Below are positions 19,281 through 64,000 of a stretch of 64,000 bases of DNA, piece after piece; the stretch's first letter is position 1, and every line of letters begins with the position of its first letter. Made by a program: the position numbers and the translations under genes. The stretch comes from Catellatospora sp. TT07R-123 (lineage in GTDB: Bacteria > Actinomycetota > Actinomycetes > Mycobacteriales > Micromonosporaceae): positions 1,054,001 to 1,118,000 of the forward strand of contig NZ_BNEM01000001.1 in NCBI RefSeq assembly GCF_018327705.1, written 5' to 3'. Below the pieces are notes generated by a model. The model had not been told where the DNA came from and made no database searches. It was given only the letters and a program-made list of their open reading frames with translations.

Positions 19281-19380
19281 TGGTACATCATGGCAAGCCG
19301 CCACTTGCGACAACAGGTCCTACATGGACTGTCGGCCGAGCCCTTCGGCACGGCCGCCCAGCCTGACGGAGGAATCCCGC

Positions 19381-48486: not shown

Positions 48487-50223
48487 ATGGCACGCACGGT
48501 GGCCGATCTGATGGTCGCGACGTTGAAGGCGTCCGGGGTGCGCCGGGTGTACGGGGTGCCCGGCGACTCGCTGAACGGGCTGACCGACGCGCTGCGCCGC
48601 GACGGCACGGTCAGCTGGCAGCTGATGCGGCACGAGGAGGCGGGCGCGTTCGCCGCGGCCGGGGAGGCGGCGGTCACCGGCGGGCTGGCCGTCTGCGTGG
48701 GCAGCTGCGGTCCCGGCAACCTGCACCTGATCAACGGGCTGTTCGACGCCAACCGCAGCCGGGTCCCGGTGCTGGCGGTGGCCGCGCAGATCCCCCGCGA
48801 CGAGATCGGCTCCGGGTACTTCCAGGAGACCCACCCGCACGAGCTGTTCCGCGAGTGCTCGGTCTACGCCGAGCTGGTGAGCGTTCCCAGCCAGCTGCCG
48901 CGCACGCTGGAGATCGCGATGCGCACGGCGCTGGCGCGCAGCGGCGTCGCCGTGATCGTGGTGCCGGGCGAGGTGTTCCTCGCCGACGCGCCGTCCGGTG
49001 CCGCGCCGGTGGCGGTGCGGGCGGTGACCCCGATCGTACGGCCGGACGAGGCGTCGCTGGCCACGGCGGCGCAGGTGCTGAACGCGGCCGAGCGGGTGAC
49101 CATCCTCGCCGGGGCGGGCTGCGCCGGGGCGCACGGGCAGCTGCTCGACGTCGCCGAGGCGTTGCAGGCCCCGGTCGTGCACGCGATGCGCGGCAAGGAG
49201 TTCGTCGAGTACGACAACCCGTACGACGTCGGCATGACGGGGCTGATCGGGTTCAGTTCGGGCTACCGCGCGATGGAGCACTGCGACGCGCTGCTGATGC
49301 TGGGCACCGACTTCCCGTACCGGCAGTTCTATCCCGAGGGGGTGCCGGTGGTGCAGGTCGACGTGCGCGGCGAGCAGATCGGGCGCCGTACGCGGGTGGA
49401 CGTGCCGCTGGTGGGGACCGTCCGCGACACCGTCGACGCGCTGATGCCGTACCTGGTCACCAAGAAGCAGTCGGCGCACCTGCACCAGATGCTCGACCAC
49501 TACGGGCGGGCCCGCCGCCGCCTGGACAAGCTCACCCAGAGCGGCGCCGCCGACTCGCCGCTGCACCCGCAGTACGTCGCCGCGATGATCAACAAGATCG
49601 CGGCCGAGGACGCGGTGTTCACCGCCGACGTGGGCACGCCCTGCATCTGGGCCGCCCGCTACCTGCGGATGAACGGGCGGCGGCGGCTGATCGGCTCGTT
49701 CAACCACGGGTCGATGGCCAACGCGCTGCCGCAGGCCATCGGGGTGCAGGCCGCCCAGCCCGGTCGCCAGGTGGTGACGCTGTCGGGCGACGGCGGCCTG
49801 GCGATGCTGCTCGGCGAGCTGATCACGCTGCACCAGCAGCGGCTGCCGGTGAAGGTGGTGGTCTTCGACAACGGCGCGCTGTCGTTCGTGGAGCTGGAGA
49901 TGAAGGCCGCCGGGATCGTCACGTACGCCACCGGGCTCGACAACCCCGACTTCGCGCAGGTGGCCAAGGCGATCGGCCTGTTCGGCGTACGAGTCGACAC
50001 TGCCGGCGAGCTGGGGGACGCGCTGCGTGCGGCGTTCGCGCACGACGGTCCCGCCCTGGTCGACGTCCGCACCGCCCGGCAGGAGCTGTCCCTGCCGCCG
50101 AAGGTCACGCTGGCGCAGCTCAAGGGCTTCACCCTGTACGCCACCAGGACCATCCTGTCCGGCAACGCCGAGGAGATCGTGGAACTGGCCAAGACCAACC
50201 TGCGCGACCTCACCGGGGAGTGA
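48487..50223 (+). CDS. poxB: Pyruvate dehydrogenase (quinone) / pyruvate oxidase
   Basis: A 578-aa thiamine diphosphate flavoenzyme that oxidises pyruvate to acetate and CO2 and passes electrons to quinone. The PYR domain (~1-180) has GVRRVYGVPGDSLNGLTDAL and the catalytic Glu in MRHEEAGAFAAAG; the FAD-binding middle domain follows; the PP domain (~375-550) has the TPP motif SGDGGLAMLLGELITLHQQR and a downstream Asn in FDNGAL. The C-terminal AEEIVELAKTNLRDLTGE is the amphipathic membrane-binding helix of PoxB. ATG 48487 is directly before ARTVADLMVATL. It could work under carbon overflow or in stationary phase. A perfect terminator follows. Confidence 0.92.
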   Translation: MARTVADLMVATLKASGVRRVYGVPGDSLNGLTDALRRDGTVSWQLMRHEEAGAFAAAGEAAVTGGLAVCVGSCGPGNLHLINGLFDANRSRVPVLAVAAQIPRDEIGSGYFQETHPHELFRECSVYAELVSVPSQLPRTLEIAMRTALARSGVAVIVVPGEVFLADAPSGAAPVAVRAVTPIVRPDEASLATAAQVLNAAERVTILAGAGCAGAHGQLLDVAEALQAPVVHAMRGKEFVEYDNPYDVGMTGLIGFSSGYRAMEHCDALLMLGTDFPYRQFYPEGVPVVQVDVRGEQIGRRTRVDVPLVGTVRDTVDALMPYLVTKKQSAHLHQMLDHYGRARRRLDKLTQSGAADSPLHPQYVAAMINKIAAEDAVFTADVGTPCIWAARYLRMNGRRRLIGSFNHGSMANALPQAIGVQAAQPGRQVVTLSGDGGLAMLLGELITLHQQRLPVKVVVFDNGALSFVELEMKAAGIVTYATGLDNPDFAQVAKAIGLFGVRVDTAGELGDALRAAFAHDGPALVDVRTARQELSLPPKVTLAQLKGFTLYATRTILSGNAEEIVELAKTNLRDLTGE

Positions 50224-50262: not shown

Positions 50263-51975
50263 CTACGAGCCGGTGTTCGCGCGCGACAGCACGTCGTGGC
50301 GCAGCCCGCTGGACGCCTCGCCGCGACCGGTCTGCTTGCGCCGCGACAGCCACAGGTGGGTGGAGCCGTCGCTCCACCGGGCCAGCTGCCAGGCGCGGGT
50401 GATCCGGGCGCCCTCGCGCGGCACCTCCTGGGCCGCGATCCACGGCGCCGCCGCGAGCAGCTCCCCCAGCGGCGGGATCGGCTCCCCGGTGCCCGGCCGG
50501 GTCAGCGCGTCGCGGCGCAGCCGCAGCCCGTCGGCGTCGGCCTGCGGGATCAGCGGGATCCAGTGCTCGGGCGGCTGCCCGGTCCGCAGCCGGTAGTCGA
50601 AGTCGACCCCGCTCGGGACGACGGGGGCGGCCGGGTCCCCGGCCGCGCGCAGCTGGGCCAGGTACTGCTCGTGCCGGTCGGCCGGGCGCCCGGTCGCGCT
50701 CTGCACCAGCCGCTCCACCGCCCAGGCCACGTTGGCGGCCTCGTCGCGCAGCAGCACGACCTCCTCGACCGGGTCGCCGTCGAGGCTGTGCGGCAGCGTC
50801 GGCGGCAGCACGAACAGGGCCTGGTCGGCACCGGCGGCGCGCAGCCGGTACATGTCCCAGTCGCCGTGGGCCGACGGCCCGATCAGCGTGCTCACCCCGA
50901 ACGTGTCGGTCACCACCAGCGACGTCACCTTCGCGACGGTGCCGACCGGCAGCTCGACCGGGATGACGAACCAGTCGTCGGAGTAGAGGATCGCGAACTC
51001 GGCCAGCAGCATCCGCCCGAGGTCGGTCCGGCCCGCCTCGACGCCGCCGAGGTAGACGCGGGCGTCCTCGAACTCCCAGAACCGGCCGGCGGGCATGCCC
51101 GGGTAGCGGACCTGGGTCGGCAGCCCCGTGTGGACGATCTCCCGGCCGGGATCGGGCGCGTAGACCCAGGTGCCGTCGGTGGCGACGTCGAGGTCGTACC
51201 AGTCCAGCGTGCCGCCCGGGTATTCGGCCGCGACCAGGTTCACCTGGTCGTTGCCCGGCCCGATCCGCGCGCCCACCCCGAAGGCGTGCTCCATCCGGGT
51301 CGGCACCCACGCCTGCCCGCCGAGGCCGGGACGGTCCGCGAACGACGTCCACCACGCCAGGTATTCGGTGACCGCGGCTAGCACCGCCGGCCGGTCGGCC
51401 GCCGCCACCGCCGGGGTCGCCGGCAGCACCGCCTGCCCGGCGGGCGAGGTGCAGGCGGCGGCCAGGGTCTGCCCGTCGGCCAGGCGCCCGGCCAGCACCG
51501 CCAGCAGGGCGGCGCTGTCGGCGTGAGCGGGGGCGCCCGGCACCGCGGCGGGCAGCTTGTACGCGTCGACGAACGCCTGCCGGTACGCACCGGCCCCATG
51601 CTTGGCCAGCAGCCGGGCGAACCGGCGCCCGCCGTCGGCGCGCAGGCTGAGGTCGACCGCCCCGGCCGGTTCCCGCTCCACCAGCACCTCCAGCGGCATC
51701 GCCTGCTGGGCGTAGCGCTCCGCCCGGTCGGTGTCGCCGTCGATGCCCTTGCCCTGGTAGCCGGACATGGTCCCGGCGTGCATGCGCATCCGCGCCGACG
51801 CCGGGGAGCCGCCGTCGCTGCCGGTGAACTCGCCGAACTGCCACTGCCGGGCCAGCAGCCAGGCCGGGTCGGCGATCCGGGCGGCCGCGCCGAGGCGCTC
51901 GTCGGCCGCCGCGTGCTGCGGTTCCAGCCGCGTCCAGGTGGTCGCCGACGGGGTCGGCTGCTCGGGGGTGGTCAT
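50263..51975 (-). CDS. Uncharacterised 570-aa protein, last gene of the giant operon
   Basis: A 570-aa soluble protein. The N-terminus WTRLEPQHAAADERLGAAAR, then IADPAWLLARQWQFGEFTG and GGSPASARMRMH, matches an uncharacterised family I recall from several phyla (RLEPRPR ... DPLWLLTRQWQxGEF). The rest is rich in Trp and beta-turns (AEYPGGTLDWYDLDVATDGT, DDWFVIPVELPVGTVAKV) and ends with ARITRAWQLARWSDGSTHLW. No signal peptide, membrane segment, Cys clusters or enzyme motif. Its ATG overlaps the preceding gene's stop by 4 nt. A structural or assembly role is inferred from the operon only. Confidence 0.85.
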   Translation of the reverse strand: MTTPEQPTPSATTWTRLEPQHAAADERLGAAARIADPAWLLARQWQFGEFTGSDGGSPASARMRMHAGTMSGYQGKGIDGDTDRAERYAQQAMPLEVLVEREPAGAVDLSLRADGGRRFARLLAKHGAGAYRQAFVDAYKLPAAVPGAPAHADSAALLAVLAGRLADGQTLAAACTSPAGQAVLPATPAVAAADRPAVLAAVTEYLAWWTSFADRPGLGGQAWVPTRMEHAFGVGARIGPGNDQVNLVAAEYPGGTLDWYDLDVATDGTWVYAPDPGREIVHTGLPTQVRYPGMPAGRFWEFEDARVYLGGVEAGRTDLGRMLLAEFAILYSDDWFVIPVELPVGTVAKVTSLVVTDTFGVSTLIGPSAHGDWDMYRLRAAGADQALFVLPPTLPHSLDGDPVEEVVLLRDEAANVAWAVERLVQSATGRPADRHEQYLAQLRAAGDPAAPVVPSGVDFDYRLRTGQPPEHWIPLIPQADADGLRLRRDALTRPGTGEPIPPLGELLAAAPWIAAQEVPREGARITRAWQLARWSDGSTHLWLSRRKQTGRGEASSGLRHDVLSRANTGS

Positions 51976-54900
51976 CGGGTTGCTCCTTCGAGTCCGGCCG
52001 CGCCGGTCAGGTCGGTCGAGACGGTCGCGCCCGCGTCGTTGAGGCCCAGGTAGACCGCGGGCAGGAAGTGGCCGTACTGGTCGAGGGTCGGCAGGGTCAC
52101 CGCACGGGCACGGGCCAGGTCGAACGCCTCGGCGACGGTGTCGCGCAGCTGCTCGGCGGTCCACCGGCCGTCGGCCGCGGGCGGCACCGCCAGCAGCACC
52201 GCCTGCGGCGCCCGCGAGTTCGGGGCGTCGTAGTGGAACGTGAGCCCGGCGACCTCGGACTCGCCGGGCACCATCTCCGTCCACTCGTCGAACACCAGCC
52301 CGGCCAGGGACGCGGCCGCGTCGACGGGCCGGATCACGTGCACGGCCAGCGCCGTACGCCCGGTCGCGGGTGCGCCCGGCAGGGCCGCCCACTTCTCGCC
52401 GTCGCGGTAGGGCAGCTGGGCGACGACCAGGTCGGTGGAGACGGCCGCGCCGGTCGCCTCGGCCAGCCCGAACACCGACTGGAGCCGGGCCGGTGCCCTG
52501 CGGACCCGGGCCAGCCGGTCCAGCCAGGTCCCCGGGGCGAGCACGTCGCCGCCGGTCAGCGCCGCCGAGTGGGCGAACAGGTCGCGCAGGCCCGCCTGGT
52601 CGGTGACCCGGAACGTCGGCGCCACCGGGAAGTCCTGGCCGAGCAGGCTGCGCAGCCGGGCGGTGTGGTGCTCGATCCGCTGCTCGTCGGTGGCGGTGGC
52701 GTCGGTGAACGCCGCCCGCAGCCGGGCCTCCTCGGCCAGGCGCCGGTCCACTTCGGCCAGCACGCCGCGGGCCTTGGTGCGCAGCTCGTCGCGCCACGCG
52801 TCGGTCCACGCGTGGCCGGTCTGCGGGTAGGCGCCGGGCAGGCCCCGGAACGCCAACGTCACCAGGTGGCCGCCCATGCCGCCGATGTCGCCGGCCTCGA
52901 CCGCGGTGGCCAGCAGGCTCCGGGTCTGGGTGAACCCGACCAGGGTCGCGGTGACGCGGTTGGCCATGTCGGCCACGCCCCACTGGACCTGCCGGGTGCC
53001 ACCGGGACCGGCCAGGTCCTCGGCCCGCACCGGCCGCGCCCCGGCCAGGGTCGCCCGGACGGCGCCGACGAGCTGGAGGAACTCCTCGACGCTGAGGGTC
53101 TGCGCGGTCCAGCCGGGCTGCCAGCCGAAGTCGGGCTCCGGCATGATCTCGTCGGGCACCGTCGGCGGGCGCAGCAGCCGCAGCCGGTCGATGAAGCGCT
53201 GCTTCAGCTCGTACAGGCCGCCGGAGCGGTCCTCGCCGACCAGCGCGATCAGGTCCAGCGGCGAGATCGCCAGCTGGTCCAGGGTGGTCTCGCCGGTGAA
53301 CAGGACCGCGCCGTCGGCGCCGTGCCAGACGCCCTTGCAGCGCACCCGCGCCGGGTCGCCGAGCAGGCGCCCGGCCCACCCGTTGACCGTCGGCTCGATG
53401 TCGGCGCGCAGCTGGCGGCCGTCGGTCGGCCACACCTTGTGATCGGCGGCGATGTCGACGGTGCCGAGGAACATCAGCCGGTGGGTGTGCACGGCCCCGC
53501 TGCGCGGGGTGCGTACGACGTCGAGCTCCGGCGGCGGCGTCTCGCCCTTGGCCAGGGCGTCCAGGACGGCACCGGCCCGGGTCGGGTTGCCCGCCGCCAG
53601 GTGGTGCACGCCTTCGGCCAGGGTCGCGTCGGCCAGCGCGTCGAGGGCGTCGGCGGCCGACTCCAGGGCGGCCAGGCAGGCGTCGTACACCGGGGTGCCC
53701 TTGGCGGGCAGCTTCACGGTCGGCTGCGCCGGGTCGGGGGCACTGCCCCACGGGATCGTCCCGGCGTGCAGGCGGCGGACCAGCTCGACCCCGTCGGCGA
53801 CGGCTCCGGCGAGGCTGCCGGGCCGGGTCACCTCGGTCGCGGTGCCGTCGGCGGTGAGGACCTGGGCCGTGTACGGCGCCAGCACCCGGAACGGCAGGAT
53901 CATCGCCGGTGCGCCCGCGGTGCCGCCCTCGGTCAGCGCCCGCTCGAACCGGTACCCGATCAGGCTGGACAGCGGCTGACCGGCGCTGATGCCCTCGGTC
54001 AGGTGCTGCACCAGGCGGACCCGGTCGGCGTTGAGGTTGACCGCGACCGCACCGGGCCGCCCGGCCCGCCCGCCTCGGGCCACGTAGCCCGCGTGCAGGA
54101 TCGCCGCGGTCGTGGCGTGCTGGAGCGACGGGGCCAGCACGTGCCCGGCGTTGGCCGCGTCGGTGTACAGCGGGCCCGCCTCGTTCGGCGGCAGGGTCGC
54201 GACCTCGGTCAGCTTCGCCGGGCCGACGTTGCTGAGCCAGCCGAACCCGCCGACGGCCAGCCCGCCGGGCTGCCGGGTGCGCACGTGCGCCAGCCGCCGG
54301 TTCGCGAACGACCCGACCCAGGCGTCGATGCGGTGCGCGGCCAGGTCCAGCCCGCCGCGCACCAGTCCGTCGAGCGCGTCGGCGGGCAGGTGGCCCTTGG
54401 TGATCTCGTCGGCCAGGTGCCGGGTGCGGGTGGTGAACTCGCGCAGGTCGGCCACGTTCGGGTCGGTGGCGGGCGCACCGGTCAGGTACTGCTCGACCGT
54501 CTGCCCGGGGTGGCCCGGTGCCTGCTGGGCCAGGCCGCGCCACAGCGTCAGCGTCGGCGGGGCGAGCGGGTCGACGTCGACCAGCTCCTTCTCCAGCAGC
54601 GCGCGGCTGCCGCCGTACGCGGCCACGGCGGCGTTCCACCATTCCAGCAGCGCCGAGTGGCGGGCCAGCCGGTACAGCAGCGGGGTCTGCCCCCGCTCCC
54701 GGGCCGCTTTGAGCCGCGCCGGGGTCATGTCCAGCAGCTCGGCCAGGTAGGTGGCCGGGTCGGCGCCGGTCAGGGCACCGGGCACCGCGTAGGACTCGCC
54801 CGCGAACACCGCGCCGGTGTGGCGCTGGTCGACGGGCAGGCCCAGCGCGGTCAGCACCTCGTTGGCCTGCTGGCGCGGCGCCTGCCGCCACGCGGAGTCG

Positions 54901-56327
54901 AAGTCCAGCCGCAGGAACCGCCACAGGTCCCCGACGTACTCCGGGCCCAGCGCGCTGCGGCCCACGTAGTCGACGGCCTGCGGCTGGGTGGCCAGCAGCC
55001 GGTGGTAGCGGTCGACGGGGTCGACGCCGGGCTGGCCCTCCCACCGCTTGACGACCGTGGCCTTCCAGCTCGCCTCGGTGAACGTGGGCAGGACCTGCCG
55101 CATGGTGCGGACCATGGTGGTGTGCGCGGCGGTGCCGCCCTCGCGGTCGGCCCAGTGCTTGAGCGACATCACCGGCAGCACACCGTACGGCTGGTCGCCC
55201 ACGCGCAGCGTCGGCAGCGCCCCGCCCGCCCGGACGAAGTCGATGAAGTGGCGCCGCACCTGCCGGACGCTGGGCTGGTCGATCCCGTCGAGCACGTGCA
55301 GCAGGAAGTAGCCCCACGTCGACGGCCACAGCAGCGCGTTCGCGTCGGCCTGGAGGTCGGTCCGGCGGCTGGCCGGGTCGCGGCCGAGCACCGCCGCCGC
55401 GGCGGCGTCGAAGCCCAGCGCCGCGGCCAGCTGCCCGCCGACCGCCTCGCCCGGCACCGCCGCCGGCGCGGTACGCGTGCCGTCGGCCAGCCGGTACCGC
55501 TCGCTGACCTGCTCGGATCGCGCGTCCAGCCCGGAGCGGGCCAGCTCGGTGTTGTTGGTGGGCGTGCCGGGGTCGGCGAACCCGAGCCCGTCGGTGTAGT
55601 GGTGCGCCTCCAGCAGCCCGGCCAGGCGGCCCGCGCCGGTGACGGTCTGGCCCTCCTCGTCCACCCCGTACACGATCAGCCGGGTCAGGGTCATGCCGAT
55701 GTTGGCGTCCTCGGCCCGGGTGATGGTGATCGCCATCCCGGCCTCGACGGCCGCCTGGTAGTCGACCATCCAGCGCATGCCGGGCGTGACCAGCGCCTGC
55801 TCGTCGGAGTCGGCGGCGTCGGCGAGCGCCCGCGGGTCCGGGCCGACCGCGAGGTCGCGGGCGATGTCCTTGCCCGCGACGTCGAAGTGCAGCGTCGACT
55901 GGCCCGGACTCCACTCGCGGTAGCCGGCCACCCGCCACCGCGTCGGCAGCAGCCGGGCCAGCGGGGCCCGGTTCCAGGTGCCGGTCGCCGGGGTCCCGGC
56001 CGGGGCGCCGTTGCGGGTGCGACGAGCGATCCAGGCGGCGCGCTCGATGCCGTACTCGGCGGTCAGCGCCTGCCAGGCGCCGAGCAGCCGGTCGGTGTCG
56101 GTGCCCGCCGCGGTCACCTCGGCCCAGTAGCGCACCCCGTGGTCGGTCTCGGCCGCGGTCAGGTCGGTCTCGTGCGTGTCGACGTGCAGCACGTCGGGGT
56201 AGATCCGGATCAGCAGCTTGCCGTCGTGGTAGCGGGTCTCCAGCCGCACCGGCAGCAGCGCGATCGGGACGTCGGCGGGCAGCGCCAGCGGCGGCGCGGC
56301 GGCGGTCGGGGTGGCGGGGGCGGTCAC
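51972..56327 (-). CDS. Uncharacterised 1451-aa protein
   Basis: A 1451-aa soluble protein. GTG 56327 overlaps the previous stop (GTGA). The start, ADVPIALLPVRLETRYHDGK followed by LLIRIYPDVLHVDTHETDL, matches a conserved uncharacterised N-terminal domain. Further recognisable blocks are ALPTLRVGDQPYGVLPVMSL (~residue 340), ILPFRVLAPYTAQVL (~800) and HTHRLMFLGTVDIAADHKVW (~945). A helix-rich segment at ~1135-1210 (RVTATLVGFTQTRSLLATAV to RRLAEEARLRAAF) could be a coiled coil. The end (LDQYGHFLPAVYLGLNDAGA) is a likely strand pair. No signal, membrane segment or catalytic motif was seen. Confidence 0.85.
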   Translation of the reverse strand: MTAPATPTAAAPPLALPADVPIALLPVRLETRYHDGKLLIRIYPDVLHVDTHETDLTAAETDHGVRYWAEVTAAGTDTDRLLGAWQALTAEYGIERAAWIARRTRNGAPAGTPATGTWNRAPLARLLPTRWRVAGYREWSPGQSTLHFDVAGKDIARDLAVGPDPRALADAADSDEQALVTPGMRWMVDYQAAVEAGMAITITRAEDANIGMTLTRLIVYGVDEEGQTVTGAGRLAGLLEAHHYTDGLGFADPGTPTNNTELARSGLDARSEQVSERYRLADGTRTAPAAVPGEAVGGQLAAALGFDAAAAAVLGRDPASRRTDLQADANALLWPSTWGYFLLHVLDGIDQPSVRQVRRHFIDFVRAGGALPTLRVGDQPYGVLPVMSLKHWADREGGTAAHTTMVRTMRQVLPTFTEASWKATVVKRWEGQPGVDPVDRYHRLLATQPQAVDYVGRSALGPEYVGDLWRFLRLDFDSAWRQAPRQQANEVLTALGLPVDQRHTGAVFAGESYAVPGALTGADPATYLAELLDMTPARLKAARERGQTPLLYRLARHSALLEWWNAAVAAYGGSRALLEKELVDVDPLAPPTLTLWRGLAQQAPGHPGQTVEQYLTGAPATDPNVADLREFTTRTRHLADEITKGHLPADALDGLVRGGLDLAAHRIDAWVGSFANRRLAHVRTRQPGGLAVGGFGWLSNVGPAKLTEVATLPPNEAGPLYTDAANAGHVLAPSLQHATTAAILHAGYVARGGRAGRPGAVAVNLNADRVRLVQHLTEGISAGQPLSSLIGYRFERALTEGGTAGAPAMILPFRVLAPYTAQVLTADGTATEVTRPGSLAGAVADGVELVRRLHAGTIPWGSAPDPAQPTVKLPAKGTPVYDACLAALESAADALDALADATLAEGVHHLAAGNPTRAGAVLDALAKGETPPPELDVVRTPRSGAVHTHRLMFLGTVDIAADHKVWPTDGRQLRADIEPTVNGWAGRLLGDPARVRCKGVWHGADGAVLFTGETTLDQLAISPLDLIALVGEDRSGGLYELKQRFIDRLRLLRPPTVPDEIMPEPDFGWQPGWTAQTLSVEEFLQLVGAVRATLAGARPVRAEDLAGPGGTRQVQWGVADMANRVTATLVGFTQTRSLLATAVEAGDIGGMGGHLVTLAFRGLPGAYPQTGHAWTDAWRDELRTKARGVLAEVDRRLAEEARLRAAFTDATATDEQRIEHHTARLRSLLGQDFPVAPTFRVTDQAGLRDLFAHSAALTGGDVLAPGTWLDRLARVRRAPARLQSVFGLAEATGAAVSTDLVVAQLPYRDGEKWAALPGAPATGRTALAVHVIRPVDAAASLAGLVFDEWTEMVPGESEVAGLTFHYDAPNSRAPQAVLLAVPPAADGRWTAEQLRDTVAEAFDLARARAVTLPTLDQYGHFLPAVYLGLNDAGATVSTDLTGAAGLEGATR

Positions 56328-59300
56328 TTCTCGGCTCCAGGCGTGAGGGCGGCGGTCGTCGGATCGATCAGGTCGGAGGCGTGTACGGCGACCCGGAACG
56401 GCATGCGCAGCAGCGACGCCGCCGTGTGCGCGCCCGCCTGGGTCCAGTCGGAGGTCCCGGCGAAGCGGGGTTCGGTCGGCGGTTCGGCGAAGATGAAGAA
56501 CCAGCCCGGCTGGGTGCTGTCGCCGCGCACCCTGCCCGACGCGATGTTGAAGCTGAACAGCGTCACGTCGGCCCCGGCCCGGCCGGTGAAGACCGGCAGC
56601 TGCACCGCGGTGTCGTCGGGGCGGCGGCCCTGCGCGGTCGTGATCGCGGGCGCGGCCTGGACGACCACGTCCGGGTACCGGCGCAGCAGCTCGCCGCGGA
56701 CCAGCAGGATGACGCTGTCGGTGGCGGCCGGGCCGACCACCTTCGCGCCGAGCCCGCCGGTGGTGCCCCAGGTCGCGATGTCGGTGATGTCGCCGGGCGC
56801 GGCCGCCGGGTCGGCCGCCGAGGCGTCGAAGAACCGGCGGAACCAGGTGGCCCGCCCGCCCGACGGGAAGCCGCGCCACAGCAGCTCCCGCCCGAACTCG
56901 TGGTTGAGTCCGGCGAGATAGGCCGCGATCAGCGGGCCGTTGCCGGCCATCAGCGCGACGCTGTCGTCGGGCAGCCCGTCGGCACCCGGGAAGACCAGGT
57001 CGGGGAACAGCTCGCGCAGCGGTTCGGCCATCGCCTGGGCGAAGTCGGGTTCGTACAGGCGGGGGCGCAGCGGGTCGGGGGTGCCGGTCGCGGCCAGCGA
57101 CGTCTTCGAGGTCGGCAGGGGGCCGATCCGGTCGGCGACGGCCGCCGGGATCGTCGCGGCCGGGTTCACCGAGTCGCTGACGTACGCCGCGACGCTGCCG
57201 ATCTCGTACGCGGCCCGCATCGGCGGGTCGACGCCCCGGGTCGCGTCGCGGATCAGCAGCCTCTGGTGCGCCTCGGCGATCCGCTGGAACGTGTCGCCGA
57301 TGCCCTTGACCCGGCCCAGCCGCTGGTTGTCCAGGTCGCCGAAGAACACCGCCACGGTCGAGTCCGGGGCCAGCGAGGTGATCGGCAGGTCGATCGGCGC
57401 CTCCCAGTGCTCGACCGTCCCGTCGGGGTGCAGCCCGAACCCGATGCGCTGGCGGTGCACCCGCCGCGCCGGGCCGGTGGCCTGCCGCTCGTCGAAGGTC
57501 AGGTGCACCACCAGCTCGGGGTCGCCGTCGCCGTCGAGATCGGTCACCGACAGGCTGAGCTGCCCGCTGGTGGTGTCGTCGTCGACGCGGTCGCCGAGGG
57601 TGAGCGAGCGCTTGTCGGTCCAGCTCTCCTGCGCGGTGCCGAAGTTGCGGCCGACGACCCAGTCGATCTCCCAGATCGGCTTGACGATCGGGCCGCCGGG
57701 GCCCTGCTCCGACGAGTACGTGGCGTTGAGGAACGCCACGGCCACGTCGGTGGGCTCGGCGTAGGGCTGCCCGGCCCGCACCGTGATCGGGATCAGGTCG
57801 GCGGCCAGATCGGACGGGACGTACCCGGTGAAGACCCGGATGTTGCGCTGCGGGCGCAGCACGGCCCGGGTGTCGAGCTGGTAGCTGCACGTGCTGATCG
57901 CCCCGGCGCCGTCCGGGTCGGCGCCGCTCCACAGCAGCACGAGCTCGGCGGCGGTGTCGGGCTGCCCGGCGCGGCGGCGCAGCGTCACGTCGGCGCCGTA
58001 CAGGCCGCGGCTGCGGAAGAACGGCAGCACCGTGTACGGCGTCGGGGCGGGCGTCCCGCTGTCGTCGAACGGCATGGCGCGGATGCACGGGTCCCAGGTG
58101 TCCATCGAGACCCCGGGCCGGACGCCGAGCAGCATCGTCACCGGCCGGGTGCGTTCGATCCGGTGCACCACGCCGCCGACGAGCTTGACCGCGGGCAGCG
58201 CGGTGTCCGCCGGAACAGGGAACGGGAAGCTCTGCTGTCGCGCCCGCCCGTCGAAGTCGACCGTGCGCAGCAGCGTCGCCGTGACCTGGCTGTGCGCGGC
58301 GTTCTCCTGCATCACCACCAGGTCCGTCAGGTACCCCAGCGGGCCGGGGGTGACCAGCGGCAGCGCGGAGGCGTACGGGTCGGTCCACCACTTCGGGGCG
58401 GCCGCGGCCACCTCGGCGGTGATGTCGCGGTAGCGGGCGGCACCGCCGGTGTACCGGTCGAGCACGCCCGCGTCCGAGCTGGCCTGCACCGGCGGCGCGG
58501 GCACGATCGTGCCCGCCGCGGCCGGGCTCAGTCCCGAGGCCAGCGGCGACAGCGGGGTGGCACCGGCGGCACGGGCCGTGGGGCCGGTCGGGCGGACCAC
58601 CCGCTGCACGTCGGCCGAGGCGATGGCGGCGGTCGACTCGTGTGTGTCCACCTGCGCCGCCACGGTGCCCTGCGCGCTGGGGATGCGGCCCAGCGCCCGC
58701 GCGGTGCGCGCCACGACCGTGTCGGCCCGTTCGGCGGCGGCGGCGAGCTGGGCCGCACCGTCGGCGGCGAGCCCGGCCGCCGAAGCGGTGCCGGCCGGGG
58801 TGAAGTAGCGGCGGTGCAGGCTCTCGCTGACCGCGCGGCCGACCTGGCCCTGGTGCAGCTCCCGGTTGACCTCGGCGAGCTCGGCGGCCTGCTGCCAGGC
58901 TGCCGACATCAGCGGCTCCTGGTGGATGCGGATCACCTCGGCGCCGAGCCCGGCCGCGGCGCGCAGCCGCGGGTCGGTGTTGAGCTGGCGCAGCCACTGC
59001 GGTTCGGTGCCGGTCCAGCCGGATCCGTGTCCGATGTGGGCGCCGAGGTACAGCGGTGCGGTGACGGTGCTGGTCCGGCCGAGGATGGTGGCCATCGCCG
59101 GGGCGAAGCCGGGGGCGATGGGGCCGGTCATGGCCGCACCGGGGGCGGTGAGGGCGGGCAGGGTGTCGGCGATGCCGGGGTCGGCGCCGACGGCCTTGGC
59201 CAGCTCGGGGTCGGCGTCGCGGTAGTACAGCTTCTTCCAGCCGGGGTCGACGACGGCCGGGCGCAGCCGCTTGGCCAGGGCGGTGAAGTCGCCGTCGGCG

Positions 59301-60070
59301 CCGGTGGAGAAGGTCCAGTGGTGGTACACCGGCAGCCGGACGCTGCCGGTGGTGCCAGTCCAGGCCGGGTCGGTCAGCTCGGTGGCGGGCACCGGGTCGC
59401 CGAGCCCGGCCAGGCGCCCGTGCTCGAACGCGGGCACGACGCAGGCCAGGTAGGTGTGCCCGTCGGCCAGCGTGCGCGGTGAGATCAGCCGCGACACTGT
59501 CCGCTCCGGACGTTCGGCCAGCAGCTTGGCGATGTCCTCGCCCTCGGCGGCGACGACCTCGGCGTGCGCCCAGGACGCGGCGTGGGACAGGTCCGGCAGC
59601 TCCGCCAGCGGCGTGTTCAGCACCGGCAGCGGGCGGCGCGGGTCGGTCTCCAGGCTCACCCCGGCCGCGGCGGTGTCGACGACGACCAGGACCAGCCAGG
59701 GCCGCAGTCCCTTCTGCGGGTGCGCGGCGGCCGGGGTGAGCCGCCACGGCAGCCCGGGGTCGTCGAACTCGACCAGCGCGAAGTGGGTGGACTCGAAGTG
59801 TTTCGCGCCGGGCGCCGGGTCGCTGCGCACGATCTGGCGCGGGTCGACGCCGGTGACGTCGCCGGGGCCGTGCAGGGCCAGCTTCGGCCCGGTCACGGCG
59901 GCGCCGTTGACGGTCAGGCCGGTGGCCAGGGTGGCCCGGGCCCGGATCGGGCCGCTGCCCGGGTCGGTCTCGGTGAGCCGCCCGGCAAGGCCGTCGCGGA
60001 CCCAGGAGAGCAGGTGCCGCTGCGCGACGGCGGGCGCGGGCGCGGCGGCGAGGTCGGTCTGGCTGGTCAT
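56324..60070 (-). CDS. Uncharacterised 1248-aa protein with FG-GAP-like segment
   Basis: A 1248-aa soluble protein. Its ATG overlaps the DUF6603 gene stop by 4 nt. The N-terminal domain includes RPWLVLVVVDTAAAGVSLET and VYHHWTFSTGADGDFTALAK. Around residue 850 LSVTDLDGDGDPELVVHLTF is an FG-GAP/VCBS-type Ca2+-binding loop. The C-terminal third carries GLNHEFGRELLWRGFPSGGR, ILLVRGELLRRYPDVVVQA and PGWFFIFAEPPTEPRF, blocks I recall from a widespread uncharacterised family (ELLWREYPTDQRG; LLRRYPNAVVYA). No signal peptide or enzyme motif. It is expected to act with the neighbouring giants. Confidence 0.85.
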   Translation of the reverse strand: MTSQTDLAAAPAPAVAQRHLLSWVRDGLAGRLTETDPGSGPIRARATLATGLTVNGAAVTGPKLALHGPGDVTGVDPRQIVRSDPAPGAKHFESTHFALVEFDDPGLPWRLTPAAAHPQKGLRPWLVLVVVDTAAAGVSLETDPRRPLPVLNTPLAELPDLSHAASWAHAEVVAAEGEDIAKLLAERPERTVSRLISPRTLADGHTYLACVVPAFEHGRLAGLGDPVPATELTDPAWTGTTGSVRLPVYHHWTFSTGADGDFTALAKRLRPAVVDPGWKKLYYRDADPELAKAVGADPGIADTLPALTAPGAAMTGPIAPGFAPAMATILGRTSTVTAPLYLGAHIGHGSGWTGTEPQWLRQLNTDPRLRAAAGLGAEVIRIHQEPLMSAAWQQAAELAEVNRELHQGQVGRAVSESLHRRYFTPAGTASAAGLAADGAAQLAAAAERADTVVARTARALGRIPSAQGTVAAQVDTHESTAAIASADVQRVVRPTGPTARAAGATPLSPLASGLSPAAAGTIVPAPPVQASSDAGVLDRYTGGAARYRDITAEVAAAAPKWWTDPYASALPLVTPGPLGYLTDLVVMQENAAHSQVTATLLRTVDFDGRARQQSFPFPVPADTALPAVKLVGGVVHRIERTRPVTMLLGVRPGVSMDTWDPCIRAMPFDDSGTPAPTPYTVLPFFRSRGLYGADVTLRRRAGQPDTAAELVLLWSGADPDGAGAISTCSYQLDTRAVLRPQRNIRVFTGYVPSDLAADLIPITVRAGQPYAEPTDVAVAFLNATYSSEQGPGGPIVKPIWEIDWVVGRNFGTAQESWTDKRSLTLGDRVDDDTTSGQLSLSVTDLDGDGDPELVVHLTFDERQATGPARRVHRQRIGFGLHPDGTVEHWEAPIDLPITSLAPDSTVAVFFGDLDNQRLGRVKGIGDTFQRIAEAHQRLLIRDATRGVDPPMRAAYEIGSVAAYVSDSVNPAATIPAAVADRIGPLPTSKTSLAATGTPDPLRPRLYEPDFAQAMAEPLRELFPDLVFPGADGLPDDSVALMAGNGPLIAAYLAGLNHEFGRELLWRGFPSGGRATWFRRFFDASAADPAAAPGDITDIATWGTTGGLGAKVVGPAATDSVILLVRGELLRRYPDVVVQAAPAITTAQGRRPDDTAVQLPVFTGRAGADVTLFSFNIASGRVRGDSTQPGWFFIFAEPPTEPRFAGTSDWTQAGAHTAASLLRMPFRVAVHASDLIDPTTAALTPGAEK

Positions 60071-63000
60071 GCGGACACCGTGCTTCCGGTGACGGCCTCG
60101 TGGGCCGGAACGATCATCAGGGCGTGGTCGGGGTGGGCGGTCGCCCAGCGGCGCAGCCGGTCGGCGGCCTCGCTGCGGCTCCACCGCTCGCCGGTCGCCG
60201 GGACGGGCCCGGCCTGGCGCAGCGTGTCCTTGGCGACGATCACGAAGCCGGGGTCGCGGACGGTGAGCTTGAGGCCGGGTCCGGCGAACCGGGCCAGGCC
60301 GGTGGCCCGGGTGGCGGCCCGCCCGGCGGCGCCGCCGTAGGCGAGCCGGTTCAGGTGCGCGCCGCCCAGGACCCAGGTCGGGTCCGGTTTGGGCAGGCCG
60401 ACCGCGGCCAGTCCGGCCGCCACCGGGTCGGGCTCGTCGATCACCTTCGTCTGGTACGTGATGACGACGGCCGACGGCCCCGCGTGGTCGTAGCCGACCG
60501 TGTCGGTGGCGGTGAAGCTGACCCCGGAGGGCAGCAGGTCGAACGCGTTCCCGGTCAGCTTCTGGTCGTCGCTGAGCTCGAAGAACTGCGCCGGGGCGAA
60601 CTCGTCCTTCACATCGGCAAGCTGCGCGAGCGCCCCGCCCAGGGTGGCCGAGTCGATGCGCAGCTCGGCGGCGCCGTCGATGGGCGCCTGGCCGTAGTGG
60701 TCCAGCCGCATGCCGCCGACCGGGGCGATCTTCTGCCGTACGCTGACCCGCGCCGAAGGCGACACCAGCAGCTCCGACAGGGTGATCCCGGCCCGCATGG
60801 TCAGGGCGGGCAGCGCGGCGCGCTCCTCGACCTGCCACGCGCCGGGTTCGGCCAGCGCGGCCCGGACCAGCGCCGACACGTCCTCCGGCGGGGCCGGGGG
60901 CAGCGCGGCCTGCTGCCCGAAGGCCGCCTTGAACCGCACGGTGGCGCTGAGGAACAGCAGCTTGATCTCGGCGTGCCCGCGCACCTGCCAGCGGCCCGGC
61001 CCGGTGACGTACAGGTCGGCGGTGATGCCCAGCAGCAGCTTGCCCTTCCACCGGATCGCCACCGCCAGGGTCAGGTCGAGCTCGAACCCGAACGGCGAGA
61101 ACCGCACCAGCGCGTCGAAGGTGAAGTGCCCGTCGGCGGTGAAGTCGCCGGTCTCGGCGTGGAAGTCCACCCGGGCGCCGAACTGGAGCGTGTTGGAGGT
61201 CAGCGCGAGGTATGCCTGCAACCGCAGCCAGAACTTCTCCTCGCCGATCTCCATCGTCATCCGCCGCAGCGCCGGGAACCCGACCGGCGGCGTGAACCGG
61301 GGGTGGAACCCGCCCGCGCTCATCACGAACTCGCTGCGGCCGCTCCACCGCGCCCGCAGCGCCATGTCGCCGGACAGGCGCCACCCGGCCAGCTGCGAGT
61401 CGTACAGGGTCGCGTCCAGCGACAGCGTGCCCTCGCCGGTGTCCAGGACACCGAGCGCGTCCATGTTGATGACCGCGACGGCCTTGCGCTCGTCGGGCAG
61501 CAGCGTGCGGACCCGGCCCGCGGCGATGAACCGCAGCGGTTTCGGCAGCTCCAGCGCCAGCGCGAGGTCGATGGTGACCACGGTCGGCACGCCCCAGGTG
61601 AGCCGGGCCGTCGGGCCGAACAGATGCCGGCCCGGGGTGACCGGGAACAGCGCGTCGAGGTCGTCGAGCAGGCGCCGCTCGTTGCCCAGCACGTCGCCGG
61701 GCGCCAGGATCGCGCCCAGCGACCCCGACCGCAGGCCCGAGCGCATCCGGTCGACGTTGACGGCCCGGTTGACGCCCACGATGCCGCCGACGGCGGCCAG
61801 GTTGAAGCCGAACCCGAGCGGGATCGGCTTGGGGAACTGCGCGTTGATGACGACCAGCAGCGAGAACCCGGGGCGCCCGTCGGGCATCCGGGTGGCCAGC
61901 AGGCCCAGCGCGGACAGGCGCAGCTTGGCGAACTCCAGGTCGATGCCGCCGGCGTACTTGGCGGCCTCGGCGTCGTAGGACAGGAACCCGGCCCCGGTGA
62001 CCGCGCCGCCGTCGATGCGCAGCGCCACCCCGTGCGGGGGCTGGAACCCGAGGTCCAGGTCGGCGGGGCCGAGGTTGCCGCCGCCGTCGGGGAAGCTGAG
62101 CTTCGCGCTCATGCCGACGCCCTGCACGGTCACCCCGACCGGGCCCAGGCGCACCTGACCGGACGCGACCGCCCGCAGGACCAGAGCCTTGACGGCGGCG
62201 TCCTTGGGCGACGGCACCAGGTCGACGTCGAGGGAGTCGAGTCTGGCCACGTCGCCGAGCACGGCGCGGACGTCGAAGTGCGCCTTGAGGGCCGCGCCGC
62301 CGGTCAGGAACAGCCCGCGCCGCCGCGACCAGCCGATGCCGAGGTCGAACTCCAGCTTCGCGTCGTCGGGCAGCACCTTGCCGAGGAAGCCGTCGCCGTC
62401 GCCGCCCGACACGATCAGCCGGGCCTTGCCGCAGCCGAACTCGACCCCGAAGTCCTGATAGTCGCGGGTGAGCTCGGCGAAGGCGGTCACCTGGACTGGG
62501 CCGTCGATCTCCAGCCGGGTGCCGGTGGTGCCACCGATGCGGATCATCTCGCCGGTGCGGACCAGGCCGAGGTCGGCGCGCAGGTTGAGGGCGGTCGCGT
62601 CGGGCAGGTCGGTGACCAGCCCGTCGGGGCCGACCGCGATCACGCTCGCCGACTGGAGCGCCGCGGTGACCGTCGCGGTCCAGTCGCCGAACGTGTCCTG
62701 GAACGCCACCGTGCCCTTGGGCGCGAGCATCAGGCCGAGGCCGCCGTCCTGCTCGCCGGCCAGGCCGACGACCAGCTCGAACCCGGCCTGCCCGTCGGCG
62801 AAGGCACCTTCGGCGGTACGCACGAACACGTGCAGCAGGTGCTCGGCCGCCGCGGCGCTGTCCCCGAGGTCGGGGATGTCGCTGCCGTACACGGCGGTGA
62901 TCGGGCTGCCGAGCCGGTTCAGGATGCCGCCGAGGGCGGGCAGCAGCAGGTCGGCGACGGCGTCGGTGGCCTCCCGGGTCGCCAGGCCCTCCTTGGTGAG

Positions 63001-63630
63001 GTAGTGCTCGCGCAGCTGGCCGACCGGGTCGCCGACGAGCGCGGGCAGCCGGTCCAGCCGTACCCGGGCGGTGTCGGACGAGAAGCGGACCAGCTTGCCG
63101 GTGGCCGGGTCCACGACGGGGTCGATCTGCGGCGCCGGGCCGTCGACCAGCGCCAGCGCCCACAGCACCGCGCCCAGCACCGGCCGGTGCCGCTGGAGGT
63201 ATGTGACGACCAGCAGGTTCACCAGGTCGGTGCCCAGCGCCGGGGCGTCGGGCAGGTTGATCCCGCCCCAGCCGTCGAACGCGGTCTTGAGCGCCCGCAC
63301 CGCGTCGAAGCACCGCTTGAGCGCCGCGAACGCCGGCTTGTACGCCTTGAGGTCGGTGGTCGGCGTCTCGATCAGCGGCTTGAGCGCGTCGACGGCCGCG
63401 CGCACCGCGCCGAACAGGGTCTCCAGCTTCGCGGTCGGGAACCCGGCGATCCCGTCGAGGTTCCACCCGATCTTCGCGAGCAGCTCGGCCCGCCAGATCG
63501 GATCGTCGGCGGCCGCCCGCAGCGGCGCCAGCAGCAGGCTGACCTCGCGGATCAGCTCGGCCCGGACGTCGACCGCGGTGGCGGTCGGGGCGGGCATGGT
63601 GTCCAGCGCGGAGGAAGGCTGGCTAGTCAT
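60067..63630 (-). CDS. DUF6603-like 1187-aa protein
   Basis: A 1187-aa protein. Residues ~1-250 are helical (REVSLLLAPLRAAADD, LLAKIGWNLDGIAGFPTAKL). From ~450 to 960 it is a long beta-rich repeat array with DUF6603 landmarks: LGFGFNLAAVGGIVGVNRAV, DRMRSGLRSGSLGAILAPGD, GRHLFGPTARLTWGVPTVVT, GGFHPRFTPPVGFPALRR, ALTSNTLQFGARVDFHAETG and GHFTFDALVRFSPFGFELDL. Alternating hydrophobic strands suggest an elongated beta-solenoid or groove. No signal peptide or membrane helix. ATG 63630 has GGAG ~10 nt upstream and overlaps the upstream gene's stop by 8 nt. Function unknown. Confidence 0.87.
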   Translation of the reverse strand: MTSQPSSALDTMPAPTATAVDVRAELIREVSLLLAPLRAAADDPIWRAELLAKIGWNLDGIAGFPTAKLETLFGAVRAAVDALKPLIETPTTDLKAYKPAFAALKRCFDAVRALKTAFDGWGGINLPDAPALGTDLVNLLVVTYLQRHRPVLGAVLWALALVDGPAPQIDPVVDPATGKLVRFSSDTARVRLDRLPALVGDPVGQLREHYLTKEGLATREATDAVADLLLPALGGILNRLGSPITAVYGSDIPDLGDSAAAAEHLLHVFVRTAEGAFADGQAGFELVVGLAGEQDGGLGLMLAPKGTVAFQDTFGDWTATVTAALQSASVIAVGPDGLVTDLPDATALNLRADLGLVRTGEMIRIGGTTGTRLEIDGPVQVTAFAELTRDYQDFGVEFGCGKARLIVSGGDGDGFLGKVLPDDAKLEFDLGIGWSRRRGLFLTGGAALKAHFDVRAVLGDVARLDSLDVDLVPSPKDAAVKALVLRAVASGQVRLGPVGVTVQGVGMSAKLSFPDGGGNLGPADLDLGFQPPHGVALRIDGGAVTGAGFLSYDAEAAKYAGGIDLEFAKLRLSALGLLATRMPDGRPGFSLLVVINAQFPKPIPLGFGFNLAAVGGIVGVNRAVNVDRMRSGLRSGSLGAILAPGDVLGNERRLLDDLDALFPVTPGRHLFGPTARLTWGVPTVVTIDLALALELPKPLRFIAAGRVRTLLPDERKAVAVINMDALGVLDTGEGTLSLDATLYDSQLAGWRLSGDMALRARWSGRSEFVMSAGGFHPRFTPPVGFPALRRMTMEIGEEKFWLRLQAYLALTSNTLQFGARVDFHAETGDFTADGHFTFDALVRFSPFGFELDLTLAVAIRWKGKLLLGITADLYVTGPGRWQVRGHAEIKLLFLSATVRFKAAFGQQAALPPAPPEDVSALVRAALAEPGAWQVEERAALPALTMRAGITLSELLVSPSARVSVRQKIAPVGGMRLDHYGQAPIDGAAELRIDSATLGGALAQLADVKDEFAPAQFFELSDDQKLTGNAFDLLPSGVSFTATDTVGYDHAGPSAVVITYQTKVIDEPDPVAAGLAAVGLPKPDPTWVLGGAHLNRLAYGGAAGRAATRATGLARFAGPGLKLTVRDPGFVIVAKDTLRQAGPVPATGERWSRSEAADRLRRWATAHPDHALMIVPAHEAVTGSTVSA

Positions 63631-64000
63631 TGGGGCGGCGCTCCACATGGGTCGGCGGGACGGCGTCGGCGTCCTCGGGGTTGAGGGTCACGTCGAAGGT
63701 GGTGCAGTAGGCGGGCTGCCCGGTCGTGGTGATCTGCCACCAGATCCGGTGCTGCGCGGCCAGGGCGGCCTTGCTCGGCGAGCTGCCCGCGGCGAAGCGG
63801 ACCTCGCCGAGGTTGTTGTTGCCGACCAGCTCGGTGCCGTCGTCGCCGCGCTTGAAGTCGACGACCGCGCTGCCCACGCTGTGGAACCAGGCCGCGACCG
63901 CGCCCTTGGGCGCCCCGGGCGCGGGCCGGGTCAGCGGGGTCGTCTTGGGCCGGGCACCGCTGCGCTTGCCGATGCCGTAGCGGGTCCGGTGCCGCCAGTG
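63623..64000 (-). CDS. Partial beta-rich protein, upstream member of the giant operon
   Basis: An open frame runs from the window edge to TAG at 63623; 125 residues are visible and the N-terminus is missing. The visible part has a basic stretch (HWRHRTRYGIGKRSGARPKT), then a beta-rich ending (AVAAWFHSVGSAVVDFKRGD, GTELVGNNNLGEVRFAAGSS, HRIWWQITTTGQPAYCTTFD) that looks like an immunoglobulin- or jelly-roll-like fold. No known family recognised. Overlaps the DUF6603-like gene by 8 nt. Confidence 0.7.
   Translation of the reverse strand, partial: HWRHRTRYGIGKRSGARPKTTPLTRPAPGAPKGAVAAWFHSVGSAVVDFKRGDDGTELVGNNNLGEVRFAAGSSPSKAALAAQHRIWWQITTTGQPAYCTTFDVTLNPEDADAVPPTHVERRPND

What the first reader, a model, noticed from the sequence alone, without database searches (positions are those of the whole stretch)
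50263..64000. Operon of giant, fully overlapping genes of unknown function
Five consecutive leftward genes (>=125, 1187, 1248, 1451 and 570 aa) are linked by ATGACTAG, ATGA, GTGA and ATGA overlaps. All lack export signals, membrane segments and recognisable enzyme motifs. Over 13 kb of coupled translation of very large proteins implies co-assembly at fixed ratios: a particle, a scaffold or a delivery/defence machine. The operon enters from beyond the right edge, so its regulator and first genes are unseen. Several blocks match uncharacterised families I recall in other phyla, so the module may be conserved and mobile.
Basis: partly seen in the sequence, partly recalled or inferred. Interest (0 to 1): 0.88.

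Follow-up and report, generated by a model that had tools for sequence, protein, structure and literature searches.

The report
Giant-protein scaffold with swappable enzyme gene
Five translationally coupled genes in this actinobacterium belong to an apparently undescribed module, found from actinobacteria to archaea, in which four huge unfamiliar proteins travel together with one exchangeable enzyme, as if they built a particle that carries that enzyme.

Summary
In detail: five leftward genes with exactly the stated overlaps. The unseen first gene encodes an 817-aa PhoD-like phosphodiesterase without export signal; the next has Pfam domain DUF6603 (P1); the other three (P2-P4) match no family. 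Relatives of P3 lie in 408 confirmed stretches of 84,980 species genomes. Of the 80 best loci, 63 hold all four families, 62 in the order P1-P2-P3-P4; the other 17 meet contig ends or contain fusions. P1, P3 and P4 coincide on 12 plasmids of 72,556. Carriers span about eleven phyla, archaea included, patchily. New here: the gene just upstream of P1 is a swappable hydrolase slot (PhoD, phospholipase D, trypsin-like, subtilase, M64-like), changing at least nine times on the P4 tree; the subtilase and trypsin-like versions share a ~120-aa C-terminal domain. P1 is predicted as more than 30 amphipathic strands. P4 is confidently predicted, without convincing PDB or viral match; its most conserved segment is poorly ordered alone, as expected of a partner-binding surface. 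Most likely: an enzyme-carrying multiprotein particle, neither a contractile injection system nor a Tc toxin. Assembly, release and target are inferred.

The parts
63623..64000 (-). 3' end of the first gene of the operon (complete gene runs to 66076, beyond the window): 817-aa PhoD-like phosphodiesterase without signal peptide, the enzyme of the 'slot'
   Evidence: Pfam PhoD 32.2 bits, E 8e-8; metal-site motifs invariant in 17 slot homologues; no Tat or signal sequence
60067..63630 (-). P1, 1187 aa, DUF6603 (PF20248): helical N-terminus, then more than 30 consecutive amphipathic strands (283-904)
56324..60070 (-). P2, 1248 aa; conserved N-terminal ~500 and C-terminal ~250 residues, variable middle with a sub-threshold FG-GAP match
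51972..56327 (-). P3, 1451 aa, no Pfam, NCBIfam or PHROGs match; conserved LPVRLETR and VGxQPYGxLP motifs
50263..51975 (-). P4, 570 aa, no family; confident model without convincing PDB counterpart; conserved DPLWLLARQWQxGEFxGEDxGSP segment
63623..63630 (-). ATGACTAG overlap, PhoD stop and P1 start
60067..60070 (-). ATGA overlap P1/P2
56324..56327 (-). GTGA overlap P2/P3
51972..51975 (-). ATGA overlap P3/P4
50224..50257 (.). 34-nt perfect palindrome between the convergent stops, possible bidirectional terminator
   Evidence: sequence printed; the T-run terminator scan does not list it

Best explanation
The operon encodes a self-contained, enzyme-carrying protein complex. P1-P4 form an obligate multiprotein scaffold or particle, translated in coupled fashion in the cytoplasm without export signals. 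The first gene supplies a hydrolase payload (here a PhoD-type phosphodiesterase, possibly a phospholipase), which docks on the scaffold; in the protease-type versions docking would use a shared C-terminal ~120-aa domain. P1 contributes a long amphipathic beta-sheet that I expect to touch lipid or membrane. The particle most likely acts on other cells' envelopes or on extracellular material after release by lysis of the producer. Shown: the operon, its conservation and order, the swapping hydrolase slot, the shared domain, absence of signals. Predicted: the folds. Inferred: assembly, docking, release and target.
For: Conserved order and coupling. Independent co-occurrence: 12 plasmids with P1, P3 and P4 on one record, side by side in the nine of these that I opened; in 296 Actinomycetota, the window's genome included, P4 in 7, P3 in 6, P1 in 9 (three of the nine only distant partial matches), all three next to each other in five. 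Slot: 51 of 59 called upstream genes are of hydrolase type, some by weak Pfam scores or by homology to the others only, six seen only by their C-terminal part; at least 9 changes on the P4 tree over 51 labelled tips. C-terminal domain shared by subtilase and trypsin-like proteins (a model built without L047 still finds L047 at E 3e-25), also on tandem upstream genes; a tblastn of 72,556 plasmids finds it in 2 records, both of which carry the operon with two such genes in tandem upstream of P1. Extracellular-style decorations: PG_binding domain in slot genes, lamin-tail and 'BGTF surface' labels in haloarchaeal P4/P3, VCBS label in P2. P1-P4 poor in Cys: 0.21-0.33% against 0.81% in soluble neighbours. 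P1 strand amphipathicity 3.05 against 1.23 +/- 0.16 shuffled, 34 of 38 strands.
Against: No particle has been seen and no multimer was modelled. I saw no recurrent release or immunity gene beside the operon (maps; 27 same-strand downstream genes listed, 21 of them scanned). The PhoD slot proteins do not carry the protease-type C-terminal domain. Five of 74 P2 homologues, four of them from protease-type loci, have a membrane-like stretch, and 34 of 67 P1 homologues have a hydrophobic 19-residue window of 1.8 or more, so some versions may sit in the producer's own membrane instead of being released. Low Cys is indirect: secreted-like neighbours were not low (0.77%). The P1 fold matches are porins at rmsd 10-15 A, so a closed barrel or pore is not shown.
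Confidence: 0.42

Rival explanations
1. Intracellular conflict or suicide system: P1-P4 sense an invader or damage and unleash the slot hydrolase on the cell's own membranes or proteins; the shared C-terminal domain works like an effector-associated adaptor.
For: No signals on any window component. Trypsin-like, subtilase and PLD-type effectors with a common adaptor resemble the design described for NTP-dependent conflict systems (PMC7159879, passages). Two slot enzymes ring in PADLOC: the L047 subtilase (E 2.8e-26) and, weakly, the L061 PLD (DrmC, E 1.4e-4). A sub-threshold EAD2 match in P1 (E 0.042). Patchy and plasmid-borne. No immunity gene needed.
Against: No NTPase in P1-P4 by Pfam; no PADLOC match for P1-P4. 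PG-binding, lamin-tail and BGTF-labelled parts are extracellular in style. P1-P4 are about 4.5 kaa without a recognisable sensor.
Confidence: 0.25
2. Extracellular digestive scaffold, like a cellulosome: hydrolases for phosphate and peptide scavenging are clustered on a surface scaffold, and the C-terminal domain is a dockerin analogue.
For: PhoD, PLD and proteases are classic scavenging enzymes; a shared docking-like domain, on two tandem enzymes in some loci; surface-type domain labels in haloarchaea.
Against: 0 of 28 PhoD-slot and 0 of 75 P4 proteins have a hydrophobic N-terminal stretch or Tat motif, whereas ordinary PhoD is exported by Tat (PMC4223295, passages). Usually one enzyme per locus. 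No cohesin or dockerin match in P1-P4.
Confidence: 0.15
3. Component of, or cargo carrier for, a contractile injection system (eCIS or T6SS-like).
For: A distant DUF6603 operon (L102) has Hcp-family genes a few genes upstream. Hcp in 4 of 24 carriers against 0 of 23 non-carriers (p 0.11). Streptomyces and haloarchaea are known for such systems (recalled; haloarchaeal ones also in an abstract listed).
Against: Hcp absent from the window genome and from 20 of 24 carriers; gp19-type tube genes not associated (p 0.39); no PHROGs match.
Confidence: 0.07
4. Four functionally linked but not physically associated proteins, for example a metabolic or envelope-maintenance pathway.
For: Gene order alone does not prove a complex; correlated divergence is expected of any co-inherited genes.
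Against: No enzyme family recognised in P1-P4; P3-P4 fusion as called in L032; conserved, disordered, interface-like segment in P4.
Confidence: 0.11

Closest known systems
Tc toxin complexes (TcA/TcB/TcC)
   Same: Several giant subunits, one variable enzymatic part, patchy distribution
   Different: No SpvB, RHS or TcdB domain in P1-P4; the enzyme is a separate upstream gene; present in haloarchaea and many environmental phyla
NTP-dependent conflict systems with effector-associated domains (PMC7159879, passages)
   Same: Swappable proteases and hydrolases sharing an adaptor domain; actinobacteria, cyanobacteria and others
   Different: No NTPase found in P1-P4; scaffold of four giant proteins; no PADLOC match for them
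PhoD family (Bacillus subtilis PhoD, Streptomyces chromofuscus PLD)
   Same: The first gene scores above the Pfam PhoD cut-off and has the metal-site motifs
   Different: Distant (32 bits); no Tat signal; fixed genetic linkage to P1-P4; PG-binding fusion in some relatives
DUF6603 (PF20248)
   Same: P1 is a clear member
   Different: Function unknown by Pfam's own description; 0 papers of the held library hold the term
Extracellular contractile injection systems
   Same: Large operons of proteins without signals, variable cargo (recalled)
   Different: No tube gene in the operon; not genomically associated

Membership tests
DUF6603 (PF20248) | Score above the Pfam gathering cut-off | tested here: met
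   418 bits against 27; single match in the genome
PhoD phosphodiesterases | Score above the Pfam gathering cut-off | tested here: met
   Window gene 32.2 bits against 27; L018, L055 and L008 slot genes 40-50 bits; the L005 fusion matched only PG_binding in Pfam but matches the slot PhoD profile at E 1.5e-98
PhoD phosphodiesterases | Conserved metal-binding motifs | tested here: met
   GDQIYAD, DDHxxxDD and GDxH positions invariant in 17 slot homologues; a stricter pattern DDHExxD matched 13 of 25
PhoD phosphodiesterases | Tat export signal | tested here: not met
   0 of 28 slot PhoD proteins
Tc toxin | SpvB/TcdB and RHS core domains | tested here: not met
   Pfam and NCBIfam scans of P1-P4 at E up to 1
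Extracellular contractile injection system | gp19-type tube gene linked to the operon | tested here: not met
   Carriers 15 of 24, non-carriers 11 of 23; none of the window genome's four matches lies in the operon
Type VI secretion system | Hcp tube protein | tested here: not met
   PF05638 absent from the window genome; 4 of 24 carriers
Phage-derived particle | Match to phage structural families | tested here: not met
   PHROGs no match; IMG/VR none confirmed; the only phage-collection hit of P3 is an unverified contig in which I saw no phage gene
Conflict systems with effector-associated domains | NTPase core | tested here: not met
   No NTPase family in P1-P4 or in the window PhoD gene
Conflict systems with effector-associated domains | One adaptor domain shared by different effectors | tested here: met
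   C-terminal domain on subtilase and trypsin-like slot genes; the PhoD type lacks it
Cellulosome-like scaffold | Secretion signals on scaffold and enzymes | tested here: not met
   Hydropathy and Tat-motif test only, no dedicated predictor
Membrane beta-barrel | Closed transmembrane barrel in P1 | tested here: inconclusive

The most novel reading that the evidence does not exclude
A previously undescribed, domain-spanning class of non-contractile protein nanomachine: four giant proteins assemble a lipid- or membrane-engaging particle that is loaded with an interchangeable hydrolase through a dedicated docking domain and is deployed outside the producing cell.
Probability: 0.33. Interest if true: 0.95.

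Novelty: categorically new. Interest (0 to 1): 0.82.

Why it matters
Its swappable, tagged enzyme would be a natural cargo-loading system. Even if the mechanism is different, four co-inherited giant families and a fold without a convincing PDB counterpart are a concrete and testable target.

Full report
WHAT IS THERE. The window is part of a 9.17-Mb, two-contig genome; its nearest relative in the P4 tree is Hamadaea tsunoensis (P4 86% identical). Five leftward genes overlap by ATGACTAG, ATGA, GTGA and ATGA. Extending to the right shows the first gene complete: 817 aa, 66076-63623, PhoD-like (Pfam 32.2 bits against a cut-off of 27; motifs invariant among slot homologues), without Tat or signal sequence. 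153 nt further upstream lies a same-strand GGDEF gene. P1 carries DUF6603; P2, P3 and P4 match no Pfam, NCBIfam or PHROGs family above cut-off. None of P1-P4 has a credible sequence relative in the PDB, and P2, P3 and P4 do not convincingly resemble each other.

CONSERVATION. A P3 alignment pattern found 420 stretches in 84,980 species genomes, 408 confirmed; the best 80 were kept. Gene calls with profiles show all four families in 63 of 80 loci, 62 in the order P1-P2-P3-P4 on one strand; the exception, a Leptolyngbya, has P2-P3-P4-PhoD-P1. Of the other 17, L040 and L032 contain P1-P2 and P3-P4 read as one ORF, the rest end at contig ends; among them the archaeal L068 also departs from the order (P3-P4-unknown-P1, P2 not seen). 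Overlaps or gaps of at most 50 nt: 28 of 28 PhoD-P1 junctions, 46 of 60 P1-P2, 59 of 73 P2-P3, 65 of 75 P3-P4; exact 4-nt overlaps 15, 26, 28 and 15. Checks that do not start from the operon: in PLSDB (72,556 plasmids) P4 hits 14 records, P1 15 and P3 12, and all 12 P3 records also have P1 and P4; three of the 12 are near-identical Streptomyces longwoodensis plasmids. In the nine of these 12 that I opened the genes are neighbours. One record has P4 alone, Paraburkholderia shows P3 only by profile, two Embleya records have only weak P1 matches. In 296 Actinomycetota, the window's genome included: P4 7, P3 6, P1 9, five genomes with all three side by side; two further carriers are highly fragmented assemblies, three P1-only hits are distant partial matches; P2 was not searched. 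In 150 genomes of the window's family P4 occurs in 21, some only partial. The P4 tree holds ten NCBI phyla and needs 21 label changes where 9 would be the least (paralogues and binning can inflate this); a Gemmatimonadota plasmid adds another. Three relatives of the same genus without a P4 match (G133, G016, G129), and one with P4 elsewhere (G118), have no operon after the conserved TPP-enzyme gene at 48499-50223; in G133 and G016 the next gene is the homologue of the window genome's gene at 86.2-87.9 kb, so roughly 36 kb here is a variable stretch.

THE SLOT. Of 66 loci with P1, 59 show a called gene directly upstream. 29 are PhoD; 6 are C-terminal parts of PhoD-PG-binding fusions cut by the locus edge; 9 are serine proteases (8 trypsin-like, 1 subtilase); 4 M64-like metallopeptidases; 2 phospholipase D; 1 beta-lactamase-like; 1 Het-C; 1 (archaeal) with metallophosphoesterase-like motifs only; 6 others (one unknown, three on the opposite strand, one tiny, one 231 nt away). 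The first 51 I count as hydrolase type. Active-site motifs (recalled) are present in 7 of 8 trypsin-like, 4 of 4 M64-like, 1 of 1 S8 and 2 of 2 PLD proteins. On the P4 tree the slot label changes at least 9 times over 51 labelled tips, against a mean of 16 for shuffled labels: inherited, but exchanged. Well-supported sister scaffolds carry different enzymes: L053 Het-C and L061 PLD; L065 M64-like and L078 trypsin-like. The subtilase L047 shares its last ~120 residues with the trypsin-like proteins (pairwise E down to 1.8e-17; found at E 3e-25 by a model without it). The same domain sits on further upstream genes in L078, L085 and L041, there once almost alone. A tblastn of 72,556 plasmids finds it in two records, two places each; both carry the operon, with two such genes in tandem upstream of P1.

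MECHANISM. The pattern (fixed giant scaffold, exchangeable hydrolase, common docking-like domain, no export signals, envelope-type decorations, low Cys) fits an enzyme-carrying complex best. S. chromofuscus PLD, a PhoD-family member, cleaves phospholipid head groups (PMC4223295, passages), so PhoD and PLD versions may share a lipid target; this is inference. An intracellular conflict system remains the main rival. Contractile systems are unlikely.

DISTANT COUSINS. Three Actinomycetota genomes with only partial P1 matches carry another type of operon with a DUF6603-type protein of 1015-3233 aa. L101 and L103 share two further large families, L102 one of them, split in two. A metallo-beta-lactamase-like gene lies upstream in L101 (Pfam E 0.005, below cut-off), Hcp-family genes lie upstream in L102, the nearer one two genes away. 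The 588-aa protein of L102 matches the P2 profile (E 3e-13).

LITERATURE. 'DUF6603' occurs in 0 papers of the open-licence PMC library; a combined search listed ten of 24 papers, none with DUF6603 or PF20248; three further searches listed nothing that I recognised as this module. Papers under other licences and preprints were not searched. Of PMC7159879, PMC4223295 and PMC7861908 I saw passages only.

Noticed in passing
L102:3592-14391 and L101:3510-16377, L103:1246-10365: A second type of DUF6603 operon (giant DUF6603-type protein, a P2-like protein in L102, other large families), with Hcp-family tube genes a few genes upstream in one case and a metallo-beta-lactamase-like gene in another.
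   Followed up: partly
window 15732-19313 (-): 1193-aa NB-ARC plus WD40 protein (NLR-like) in a stretch of lower GC (0.667) that my codon-usage gene caller skipped.
   Followed up: partly
L002:5230-6705 (genome C1:1120233-1121705), just right of the window: GGDEF gene on the same strand 153 nt upstream of the PhoD gene; its best relatives in the genus are at most about 60% identical, as is a second copy in the same genome.
   Followed up: partly
L006:19944-21749: Orphan P4 homologue on a Streptomyces anthocyanicus plasmid that has no P1 or P3 match.
   Followed up: no
L082, L089, L090, L094 between P1 and P2: A Kelch beta-propeller gene is inserted between P1 and P2 in four actinobacterial loci.
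   Followed up: no
P2 of L047, L074, L078, L088, L092: Membrane-like stretch (19-residue hydropathy 2.5-3.6) in P2, mostly in protease-type loci: these versions may be membrane-anchored.
   Followed up: no
L064:5-1879: Fragment with alpha-2-macroglobulin TED and bMG10 domains lies upstream of the slot gene in a Goldiibacteriota bin.
   Followed up: no
MT835531.1 (L105): Record filed as 'Bacteriophage sp.' looks like an actinobacterial chromosome piece (76% GC, LexA-like and sirtuin-like genes by eye) and carries P1-P4.
   Followed up: yes
L091 and L092: P4 of a Bacteroidetes bin and a Chloroflexi bin are near-identical, possibly a binning error.
   Followed up: no
L008, L009, L010: Haloarchaeal P3 homologues reach 2300-3100 aa with large insertions, and P4 homologues are annotated with lamin-tail domains.
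   Followed up: partly
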